In this document: positions 35,785 to 39,435 of the stretch, in pieces
How the letters are laid out: each line of letters starts with the position of its first letter
Position numbering within the stretch: the first letter of the stretch is position 1
Source: Allomyces arbusculus
Lineage: Eukaryota > Blastocladiomycota > Blastocladiomycetes > Blastocladiales > Blastocladiaceae
Assembly: GCA_027604705.1 (NCBI GenBank)
Contig: JADHYV010000037.1
Span: 124,001 to 188,000 of the forward strand
Length of the DNA: 64,000 nucleotides
Direction of reading: 5' to 3'
The notes under the pieces: model-generated
Database searches by the model: none
Told to the model about the DNA's origin: nothing
The model's input: the letters and a program-made list of their open reading frames with translations, nothing else
Made by a program: the position numbers and the translations under genes

Positions 35785-35857
35785 GTTCTCTTAGTCTAGT
35801 GGTTACGACGTCTCGCTTACACCGAGAAGGTCGCCAGTTCGAACCTGGCAGGGAACA
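35785..35857 (+). tRNA. tRNA-Val (TAC)
   Basis: Acceptor GTTCTCT pairs with AGGGAAC (one G-U). D-loop with TAGTCTAGTGGTTA, anticodon stem TCTCG/CGAGA enclosing CTTACAC, T arm GCCAG-TTCGAAC-CTGGC, discriminator A. B-box GGTTCGAA-like element is intact. No intron. Confidence 0.95.
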
Positions 35858-35998: not shown

Positions 35999-36734
35999 TT
36001 ATTTGCGATGCACACTCTTATCCAAACGATCCTGCTCCACACCAAACTTACCGCCATAGCCACGACTGAAGTTAGACGTTTGGCGGTACTGCTCCATGCG
36101 CTCCACCTTGTCCTTTTCTTCAACCTTTTGGCGGATCGCTACACGCGGTGTGTGGAGGGCAAGAAGCATCAATACCAAGAAAACGTTAGGAACAGGTCGA
36201 TCAAGGCCACGACTCCAGTTATAGAACTACAGACCAGCGAGGTTCATGTCCTCGTCGTCATGGACTGCGCCCTTGGCACCCATGGTTTCCGGCACCGACT
36301 TGGAGCCCCACCTATCCCCCGCATTACGCTTATAGTGAGCGGCTCAGCGCTGCGATGACGAGATGATGGGGACGCGTGGGCGCGTACCGCGATTCCTTTT
36401 CGCTCACGTCGTTGATAAAGTCGGCGCCCGTGTCCCAGTCGTCGTCATCGTCGACTTGGCTGTAAACATAGATCGAATCAAGTCCACGACGTCAGCGTCA
36501 GTGCACACCATGCACTTGAGCCGTCGCCGCCGCGTCGAGCTCCGACGTCGAGGCTGCGGTCCGTCGCTCCGCATCGCAGCAGAGTACGAGATTCACATCG
36601 CAGCGGACGGGATCATGCCGGCTGCGGTGTTGGCAACGAGGTGGTACTGACGTCGTGGTCTTTGGAGCAGGCGCGGTCGCGGGCACTTTCGCGACTGACG
36701 CTTTCCATGCGTTGTTGGCGGGTTTGTCGGCCAT
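35999..36734 (-). CDS. Minimal cortactin/HS1-like protein, 123 aa, one repeat, no SH3
   Basis: Resembles the N terminus and first repeat of animal cortactin/HS1, which activate Arp2/3 through an acidic DDW segment and bind F-actin through repeats. Proposed exons: 36734-36652, 36459-36388, 36311-36235 and 36138-35999 (introns 192, 76 and 96 bp). The spliced product has NNAWKASVAK (cortactin begins MWKASAG), then DDDDDWDTGADFINDVSEKE and SRWGSKSVPETMG (cortactin [20 protein letters not shown]). It continues NLAAIRQKVEEKD and FSRGYGGKFGVEQDRLDKSV, nearly identical to repeat 1. It then stops after HRK, so the remaining repeats, proline-rich region and SH3 are absent. Phases close at all junctions. 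The 192-bp first intron (donor GTCAGT) is the weakest join. Divergent from Tectonic. Confidence 0.8.
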
Positions 36735-37093: not shown

Positions 37094-39435
37094 ATGCGAA
37101 CCAGTCAACATCCGGCATGGCAATTGAGGGCACGTTCAAGAACAGGACGCGCTGCACTCGTCGCTCTCTTTGCAATAGCCGCTGTGATTTGCCGAGTCGC
37201 CCTCTTGGCGAACGCAAGCACCGACTTGTCCTTGATCTCGTCGCCAGGTTCGCAACGTCTTTTCGGGAAATGATTATCGATTGCGCCGCTGAGCCAACCG
37301 TACGACTATGCCCTAGCATTCCAGGCGTGCCCGTGTGATCTCAACTCGCTCTGCGACCCGACTTGCTGCTGCGACCCCGATTGCCCGGCATCTGCACGAA
37401 CATTACCCTCCTGCATGGCCGGAAGCGTCGATGCGTACGTGGCCGCGGGCGCATCGGCCGTGACACTCGAATCGGCATGCGTCCAAGGGCTCGTTGCCGT
37501 GCACGGAACTGGTGCTGCGACTCAACTCGGCGGGAACCCTGTGTGCGTGCTGTACAACAACAGTGCGAATTACCCCCTCTCTCGCTGTTCTCGCTCCGAT
37601 GCGAGGACCAAATGCTTACTGTGCGTCTCGTCCAACAGACCCGTCCCTCGGCTCGTTTTACGTCTCGTCGTCCACTTCGTTGACGAGCGTCGCCGACCTC
37701 AACTTTGCGCTTGGCTCGGTCTCGCCGCAACTATCCACCGAGGCCGCAGCCGAGTACGCGGTGCAAACTGCGTCAGCCTACACGGTATGCAAATCGTCGC
37801 GACAACCCACGGTCGCATGTCGTCCGACTGATTTCCTTCGGGACAATTGCTTTGCCCACGGGAAAGGATAGCCAGGGATGGCCATTCAGACCCTGATCAA
37901 GCCGGACGGTTCGCGGCAAGGCCAGTTTTACGTGCCGCGCGCACGAGGACAGCCATCGAGCTCTTCTGCGTGCTTTGACTCAGTTCATCTTGGTGCGTTT
38001 TGAGCAAATTCCTTGATCGATTGTAAATGACTTCTGACGGCGCGAACATCTTGATAGCCTTTTTGAACGCATCGGCGTCCACCTGCACGCGCGACCTCTC
38101 GTCCCCCAACTCGCCCTGCGCGGCCAACTCGACGCTCGACATGAACATTTACGCTGGCCCCGTCGATGTGACGGCTGACCCGTCGATCCCGAGCAGCTCG
38201 GCACCCGTCGTCTTGCGCCAGCCGTGGTCATGCCCAACGCGCTTCCAGGTCAATGGTGCGTGCTGTATCGGCAGGTGCACGACCACTGTCGACAAGTCGG
38301 CGATTCCCGCGCCGAGTTTGGTCGGGTCCACATGCCGGACTGTCGCCACGGATGTGCACTACCGGATCGAGTACGTGCCCGCCGTGAGCTCCTCGTCGCG
38401 GTTCCGGATCCGGCAGGTCATTGTTGACTGGGCGGTCACGGACGTGGCGGCTGCGACGACCGTTGGGAACGGCGTCGTGGAGCAGACGTTTGCCACCACG
38501 TTTGTGAACGTGAACGGGACAACAAGCTCGATGGTGCGCCTGATTTTTCTTTCCTCTTTCGCACATCGTGTAACTGATGAGCTGGTCTTTATTCACAGCC
38601 GACCTCGGATGGGCTGGCAGACGTCCAAGTCCGATCAGGGAGCCCTGGGTTCCACTTTGGCTCGCCGATTCTCGCTTGGGACTCGGCTTGGCCCAACTCG
38701 TCGACTCTTGCGCCGTCCGAATGGTACTGGTCCCTGCCCACGACCGACCCGGCCACGGGCCAGTGCAGCTCGACGTCATCCTCCTCTCCGCACTTCCCAT
38801 CCGATGTGGCCGCTCTCCATCCGCCCGACTCGCTCCTCGACGCCTCGTCCCCACGCTTCCCGCGCCCGCTCATCCGATTCGCAGCCGACACCGAATCCTC
38901 ATGTGCGCTGACCTGGACCCCTGGATCCACCACGACCTGCGCAACAATCCGCGCGTACCTTGGCTCAGTCCTCTCGCGCGCGACCGCGGTCGCGCGATTC
39001 GGCAACATCACAACCAGCCCAACCGCCGCTCCAAGCGACTGGCTCCACGTGGCGATTGCCGCCGCCCCGCCCGTCTCCGCCGCGCCCGACACACCGACGA
39101 CGTGTCCACTTGTCGCAACGCAGCTCGATCTCGACTTTACCTGGGCCGATGCGGGCAATGCGGCCAAGCCGGAACCAATGATCGTCGGCGTACGCGCCGC
39201 ATACGGCCGCGTGCGGTCGTTTGGGGAGCCGGTGTCGTGTACGACGCCCGCGACGTGTGCGCAACTGGCGGCGGATTTGGCCGCGGGAAATACGGGGGTC
39301 GCAGCGGTCACGGTGCCGATGACGGTACGGGTGCAATGGACGCGGATCACGCCGGATCGGGTGGCTGCGTGGGTGCCGCCGCCGCCGGCATTGTTCCCGC
39401 CGTTGCCGAGCGACTGGTTTTATCCGTTTGCGTAA
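37094..39435 (+). CDS. TCTN: Tectonic (ciliary transition-zone protein)
   Basis: Tectonics belong to the MKS/B9 module that gates the ciliary transition zone; a fungal copy points to a flagellated zoospore. Six exons: 37094-37247, 37317-37562, 37639-37784, 37872-37992, 38058-38533 and 38599-39435, with introns of 69, 76, 87, 65 and 65 bp, giving 659 aa. A hydrophobic N-terminal segment (ALVALFAIAAVICRVALLANA) is a signal peptide. The diagnostic Cys-rich block is ACPCDLNSLCDPTCCCDPDC. It is followed by VCVLYNNNPSLGSFYVSS, GMAIQTLIKPDGSRQGQFYV, CFDSVHLAFLNASASTC, VATDVHYRIEYVP and VRSGSPGFHFGSPILAW, the family's RSGNPGY-type motif. The C terminus ends PPLPSDWFYPFA without a clear TM helix, as in secreted or peripheral tectonics. 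All phases close. Confidence 0.9.

What the first reader, a model, noticed from the sequence alone, without database searches (positions are those of the whole stretch)
35999..36734. A 123-residue single-repeat cortactin/HS1 homolog in a fungus
Four short exons splice in phase into WKAS, an acidic DDDDDW segment, ADFINDVSEKESRWG, and one repeat GYGGKFGVEQDRLDKS, then stop. Cortactin is known mainly from animals and their relatives, with several repeats and an SH3 domain. A repeat-1-only form would keep the Arp2/3-activating part and one actin-binding unit and could be close to the ancestral form. Amoeboid crawling of zoospores would be a fitting context (inference).
Basis: partly seen in the sequence, partly recalled or inferred. 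Interest (0 to 1): 0.72.

Follow-up and report, generated by a model that had tools for sequence, protein, structure and literature searches.

The report
Half-repeat cortactin in a flagellated fungus
A flagellated fungus carries a very short version of cortactin, an animal protein that steadies branched actin filaments, keeping the part that grips the branch point and only half of one filament-binding repeat.

Summary
Four minus-strand exons (36734-36652, 36459-36388, 36311-36235, 36138-35999) join through GT..AG introns into a 123-residue protein that matches mouse cortactin's N-terminal acidic (NtA) domain and the start of repeat 1, in order (i-E 1.3e-16; Pfam HS1_rep 31.5 bits, cut-off 27). 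One correction: it has half a repeat (profile positions 1-17 of 36), not one. A tRNA-Val gene lies 141 bases past the stop, and the genome search found no second HS1 place. Rhodopsin-guanylyl cyclase genes point to Blastocladiomycota. Arp2/3 subunits, a WASP-like gene, CYFIP and Abp1 are present. By the published cortactin-branch structure the retained parts should hold active Arp3 and touch only the first daughter actin: a branch-point clamp without the filament-binding array (inference). Two surveys place cortactin's origin in animals and their relatives, but a 2006 EST table lists a Blastocladiella contig as 'cortactin', so presence in the phylum is not wholly new. The half-repeat form, the full gene model and the partner list are what this adds. 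No transcript or biochemical evidence was available.

The parts
36652..36734 (-). Exon 1: start codon, N-terminal stretch with AWKAS
   Evidence: donor GTCAGT, also used by ArpC4 intron 1 of this genome. WKAS likeness to the cortactin N-terminus is recalled, not shown by a call (one search found nothing)
36388..36459 (-). Exon 2: acidic DDDDDW motif (Trp36 codon 36435-36437) and DTGADFINDVSEKES, counterpart of cortactin's Arp3-binding acidic segment
   Evidence: exon alone beats 2000 of 2000 shuffles
36235..36311 (-). Exon 3: RWGSKSV to MNLA, middle of the NtA domain
   Evidence: in register with cortactin, weak alone (171 of 2000 shuffles reach it)
35999..36138 (-). Exon 4: NtA helix counterpart, HS1 half repeat, stop codon
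   Evidence: exon alone beats 2000 of 2000 shuffles; helix modelled over residues 2-20 of the exon peptide, low confidence
36011..36061 (-). HS1/cortactin half repeat (Pfam HS1_rep positions 1-17 of 36)
36460..36651 (-). Intron 1, 192 nt, GTCAGT..ACAG
36312..36387 (-). Intron 2, 76 nt, GTACGC..ATAG
36139..36234 (-). Intron 3, 96 nt, GTCTGT..GTAG
35785..35857 (+). tRNA-Val(tac); 141 bases lie between it and the last exon; bounds the gene

Best explanation
This is a real gene, found once in the assembly, for a minimal cortactin of a (probably blastocladiomycete) fungus: the NtA domain followed by the first half of repeat 1, with no repeat array and no SH3 domain. It most likely works as a class II nucleation-promoting factor that stays at the branch point. 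DDDDDW should sit in the basic pocket of Arp3, the following stretch should run over Arp3 and end in the helix that favours active Arp3, and GYGGKFGVEQDR should touch the first actin of the daughter filament. It should steady young branches and act together with WASP, but should not coat filament sides or recruit SH3 partners. Shown: gene model by homology, the missing parts, presence of Arp2/3 subunits, a WASP-like gene, CYFIP and Abp1. Inferred: expression, binding, branch protection, cell role.
For: Homology to cortactin in order over NtA and repeat 1 (chain 8p94_I, domain 1 64.3 bits, i-E 1.3e-16; NtA chain 8tah_H E 4.1e-9). The half repeat is closest to mouse repeat 1 (14 of 16 identical, against 9-11 of 16 for the other six), so NtA and repeat-1 start look like one inherited block. 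In the branch structure NtA residues 21-79 bind Arp3 and repeat 1 runs from the first to the third daughter actin (PMC11102864); NtA alone protects branches, less than full length. This fungus's Arp3 is basic at 9 of 10 pocket positions. WASP-like gene: WH1, CRIB-like motif, two WH2-like stretches and an acidic-Trp end read by eye. CYFIP; ArpC4. Its Abp1 has no acidic-Trp motif between ADF-H and SH3 in the stretch read; yeast Abp1 has two acidic motifs and vertebrate Abp1 none (PMC6057921).
Against: No RNA, protein or binding data. Donor GTCTGT has no counterpart seen. The Arp3 pocket is not diagnostic: fission-yeast Arp3 (3dwl; species recalled) is basic at 8 of 10, and acidic tails of WASP proteins use the same site. 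The helix gave no sign of amphipathy (moment 0.070, reached by 1852 of 2000 shuffles), though the mouse stretch fails the same test (0.169, 1115 of 2000). By eye, hydrophobic helix positions agree with mouse only in the first third. The exon 4 fold is low confidence (mean pLDDT 57.2). The Pfam scan of the WASP-like frame found WH1 but no CRIB/PBD family at E 0.01.
Confidence: 0.72

Rival explanations
1. A longer, ordinary cortactin whose remaining exons were missed or lie elsewhere in the assembly.
For: Exon 4 holds a strong donor-like GTAAGT inside the repeat and GTGTGC just before the stop; a 197-contig assembly may be incomplete, and the genome search scores only its best candidates.
Against: PF02218 over 25.9 Mb gives one place even at E 10; the protein search gives its own four exons and a fifth hit at E 0.15; the three frames beyond the stop show no repeat-like text by eye; a tRNA gene follows on the other strand, then XPG_N and MKT1_N domains. 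Using GTAAGT would cut the conserved GGKFGVEQDR.
Confidence: 0.08
2. A decaying remnant of a once longer cortactin, no longer functional.
For: It stops in mid-repeat; found once; no expression data.
Against: Open frame over four exons with GT..AG introns and near-identity to animal cortactin at the Arp3 motif and repeat start. Blastocladiella emersonii has an EST contig called cortactin at 97 bits; this protein scores about 81 bits against the mouse fragment by a formula, so a similar extent is possible but not shown.
Confidence: 0.08
3. A competitor rather than a clamp: it occupies the Arp3 acidic pocket and displaces WASP, damping branching.
For: Cortactin and WASP-family acidic segments share the Arp3 site (PMC10613254); without repeats it may be held less firmly at branches.
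Against: Mouse Cort1-76 coactivates with GST-WWCA, and shorter pieces that only compete do not; NtA alone protects branches. The fungal protein has sequence on both sides of the acidic motif.
Confidence: 0.12
4. Horizontal gain of an animal cortactin fragment rather than descent from the common ancestor of animals and fungi.
For: Cortactin was reported from Holozoa on in one survey and from choanoflagellates plus animals in another; no other fungal sequence was compared here.
Against: Three introns, two of them with donors like those of ArpC4; the gene lies inside a 232.5 kb contig between MKT1-like and tectonic-like genes; a Blastocladiella EST contig.
Confidence: 0.1

Closest known systems
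Cortactin (CTTN), chains 8p94_I and 8tah_H
   Same: NtA acidic-Trp motif, DF.NDVSEKE.RWG, helix region in register, start of repeat 1 (14 of 16 identical)
   Different: Mouse has 6.5 repeats, helical and proline-rich regions and SH3 (PMC10613254); this protein stops after half a repeat and is seven residues longer in the middle of NtA
HS1, haematopoietic cortactin paralogue with 3.5 repeats (PMC11102864, passage)
   Same: Fewer repeats, lower F-actin affinity expected
   Different: 0.5 repeat here; no SH3 here
Abp1 (class II factor of yeasts; PMC6057921, passages)
   Same: Yeast Abp1 has acidic motifs used on Arp2/3
   Different: Abp1 binds actin by an ADF-H domain and has SH3; this genome has a separate Abp1
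BeAS153, Blastocladiella emersonii EST contig called cortactin (PMC1550239, Table 1)
   Same: Probably same phylum; hits found only in animals; 97 bits
   Different: Only a table row; sequence and architecture not seen here

Membership tests
Cortactin/HS1 family | Acidic NtA domain with DDW motif | tested here: met
   Sequence match; binding itself not testable
Cortactin/HS1 family | HS1/cortactin repeat over the Pfam cut-off | tested here: met
   31.5 bits against 27, but positions 1-17 of 36 only
Cortactin/HS1 family | Array of several 37-residue repeats | tested here: not met
   One half repeat; one place in the genome
Cortactin/HS1 family | C-terminal SH3 domain | tested here: not met
   No SH3 in the Pfam scan at E up to 1; stop, then tRNA. 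Hence a homologue and variant, not a full cortactin
Cortactin/HS1 family | Amphipathic helix after the acidic part | tested here: inconclusive
   Helix modelled at low confidence; moment low, mouse control also not above shuffles
Cortactin/HS1 family | Branch stabilisation and synergy with WASP | not testable with these tools
   Needs biochemistry
WASP-family (class I) factor | WH2 plus C-terminal central-acidic segment | tested here: not met
   No WH2 in the Pfam scan; the acidic motif is N-terminal
Abp1 family | ADF-H domain | tested here: not met
   the genome's Abp1 is elsewhere

The most novel reading that the evidence does not exclude
The half-repeat protein preserves the original opisthokont cortactin: a pure clamp between Arp3 and the first daughter actin, to which Holozoa later added the repeat array (0.5 here, 3.5 in HS1, 6.5 in cortactin, each ending in a half) and SH3. 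Division of class II duties between cortactin and an Abp1 without acidic motifs would then be ancestral, and yeast's acidic Abp1 a later substitute for a lost cortactin.
Probability: 0.3. Interest if true: 0.72.

Novelty: new variant of a known kind. Interest (0 to 1): 0.52.

Why it matters
It would move cortactin's origin from Holozoa back to the ancestor of animals and fungi, and it separates two functions that animal cortactin carries together: holding active Arp3 and binding along filaments. A natural protein with only the first would be a direct test of the branch-clamp model drawn from cryo-EM. It also bears on why yeast Abp1 has acidic motifs that vertebrate Abp1 lacks.

Tried and rejected
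Prokaryote genome collection scan with the protein: 89 stretches matched a pattern, none confirmed. PDB search with the exon 1 peptide alone: no hit up to E 10, so the WKAS likeness stays recalled; the published extinction coefficient of mouse Cort1-33 (11,000, which I read as two Trp) fits a second Trp beside Trp22. Helix amphipathy test: no power, on 24-residue stretches that I chose. Structure: only the exon 4 peptide was folded, alone, at low confidence. Arp3 pocket: kept, but fission-yeast Arp3 keeps most of it too. Frameshift as cause of the early stop: none of the three frames beyond the stop shows repeat-like text by eye. Pfam on neighbours was run on 8 of the 137 open frames listed; 4 of the 8 had a match. 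L050, fetched to read the rest of Abp1, was not examined. The metagenome collection was not used (its cap is 0), so no fungal relatives could be fetched. Prostak et al. 2021 (PMC8812817), the paper most likely to treat chytrid actin regulators, is not held, so I cannot say whether it mentions cortactin.

Full report
What is there. The minus strand from 36734 to 35999 holds four exons that join in frame to 372 nt, 123 codons plus TAA. Introns are 192, 76 and 96 nt, all GT..AG. The ArpC4 gene of the same genome, whose reading is clear from its protein, uses GTCAGT and GTACGA as donors, like introns 1 and 2 here; GTCTGT of intron 3 has no counterpart among the few introns I looked at.

Homology. 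A PDB sequence search up to E 1 returns four sequences: cortactin first (chain 8p94_I, overall E 3.3e-37; the NtA plus repeat 1 stretch alone 64.3 bits, i-Evalue 1.3e-16), then the cortactin NtA chain 8tah_H at E 4.1e-9, then two lectins at E about 0.07. Pfam up to E 1 finds one family, HS1_rep, 31.5 bits against a cut-off of 27, over profile positions 1-17 of 36. Against mouse residues 12-99 the Smith-Waterman score is 198 (2000 shuffles: mean 29, maximum 92). Exons 2 and 4 alone beat 2000 of 2000 shuffles; exon 3 alone is reached by 171 and exon 1 by 1584 of 2000. The 16 residues of the half repeat are 14 of 16 identical to mouse repeat 1 and 9 to 11 of 16 to the other six, so the protein looks specifically like NtA plus the start of repeat 1. 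That the chains are the mouse protein follows from the methods of the two structure papers; the tie of entry codes to papers is recalled.

Half a repeat, not one. In mouse cortactin repeat 1 is residues 80-116 (PMC11102864: outline, passages and sections 7 and 9 read). The fungal protein ends soon after the counterpart of residue 98, with VHRK and stop. The three frames beyond the stop show no repeat-like text by eye; a tRNA-Val gene lies at 35785-35857 on the other strand, 141 bases away; the next domains found on the minus strand are XPG_N and MKT1_N. PF02218 finds one place in 25.9 Mb, also at E 10, with the tool's caveat that only best candidates are scored. The protein itself finds its own four exons and one further place at E 0.15.

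The organism. The genome has two microbial-rhodopsin genes. One continues into a guanylyl cyclase whose best PDB matches are nucleotide cyclase chains, among them 'bacterio-rhodopsin/guanylyl cyclase 1 fusion protein'. Such fusions are recalled as a mark of Blastocladiomycota, so I take the organism as one; the species is unknown, and no marker-gene tree was made. A tectonic-like gene (DUF1619_N over its cut-off, TCTN_DUF1619 just under) lies head to head with this gene, fitting a flagellated organism.

Partners. ArpC4, Arp3 and, by eye, Arp2 are present. A WASP-like gene has WH1, a CRIB-like ISTPFDFRH motif, two WH2-like stretches and an acidic end in DDDDW and stop (by eye); the Pfam scan of its frame gave WH1 but no CRIB family at E 0.01. 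CYFIP points to a WAVE complex; SCAR itself was not searched. Fritz-Laylin et al. link WASP plus SCAR to actin-filled pseudopods (PMC5461030, passages read), and a review by that group notes that deeply branching fungi keep actin regulators missing from yeast (PMC12050087, passages read). Abp1 has ADF-H and SH3 matches and, in the 604 residues read, no acidic-Trp motif between them.

How it most likely works. In the branch structure NtA residues 21-79 bind Arp3, D21-W22-E23 enter a basic pocket, residues 55-76 form a helix that favours active Arp3, and repeat 1 runs from the first to the third daughter actin; NtA alone protects branches, though less than the whole protein. The fungal protein keeps the acidic-Trp motif, a stretch in register with the helix region, and the repeat start that lies on the first daughter actin, including, by my count, the Lys that corresponds to mouse K87. 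I infer a branch-point clamp that acts with WASP and does not bind along filaments. Fungal Arp3 is basic at 9 of 10 pocket positions named in PMC10613254 (passages read); fission-yeast Arp3 at 8 of 10, so this is permissive, not diagnostic. Results against: helix amphipathy not seen (nor in the mouse stretch by the same test), fold confidence low, no functional data.

What is known. One survey of 151 proteomes places cortactin from Holozoa on (PMC4824007, passages); another places it in an ancestor of choanoflagellates and animals, with five fungi in its search set (PMC2824662, passages); [quoted passage not shown] Against these, Ribichich et al. 2006 list B. emersonii contig BeAS153 as 'cortactin', 97 bits, among hits found only in animals (PMC1550239; abstract, passages and part 1 of 3 of the tables read). 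It is one row of Table 1; the word occurs once in the main text. Searches for cortactin with chytrid (6 papers), Capsaspora (6), early-diverging fungi (0), zoospore (3), HS1 repeat plus fungal (0) and opisthokont (15, 14 listed), and a two-of-five-terms search with Allomyces, Blastocladi, Rozella and Spizellomyces (15 of 272 listed, none of the 15 with the word cortactin) showed no other description of a fungal cortactin, judged from titles and abstract starts and from the passages of those I opened. Also opened, nothing used: PMC6450878, PMC7755917, PMC3663805. Prostak et al. 2021 is not held, and the library lacks most subscription papers, so absence from print is not shown.

Verdict. A real, probably functional, minimal cortactin homologue: a new variant of a known kind. 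Presence in the phylum was hinted at in 2006; the half-repeat architecture and its partner set are the addition. Ancestral simplicity and secondary loss cannot be told apart here.

Noticed in passing
window 37274-38911, + strand: Tectonic-like gene (DUF1619 domains) head to head with the cortactin gene; a ciliary transition-zone gene possibly sharing the promoter region.
   Followed up: partly
window 35301-33707, - strand: XPG_N and MKT1_N domains: an MKT1-like gene downstream of the cortactin gene.
   Followed up: no
L002 and L003: Two rhodopsin genes; L002 continues into a guanylyl cyclase through intron-like breaks; L003's cyclase part was not examined.
   Followed up: partly
L042, - strand: Abp1 with ADF-H and SH3 matches lacks, in the stretch read, the acidic-Trp motifs reported for yeast Abp1; an animal-like state in a fungus.
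   Followed up: partly
L013, - strand: WH1 domain followed by long proline-rich runs, perhaps Ena/VASP-like.
   Followed up: no
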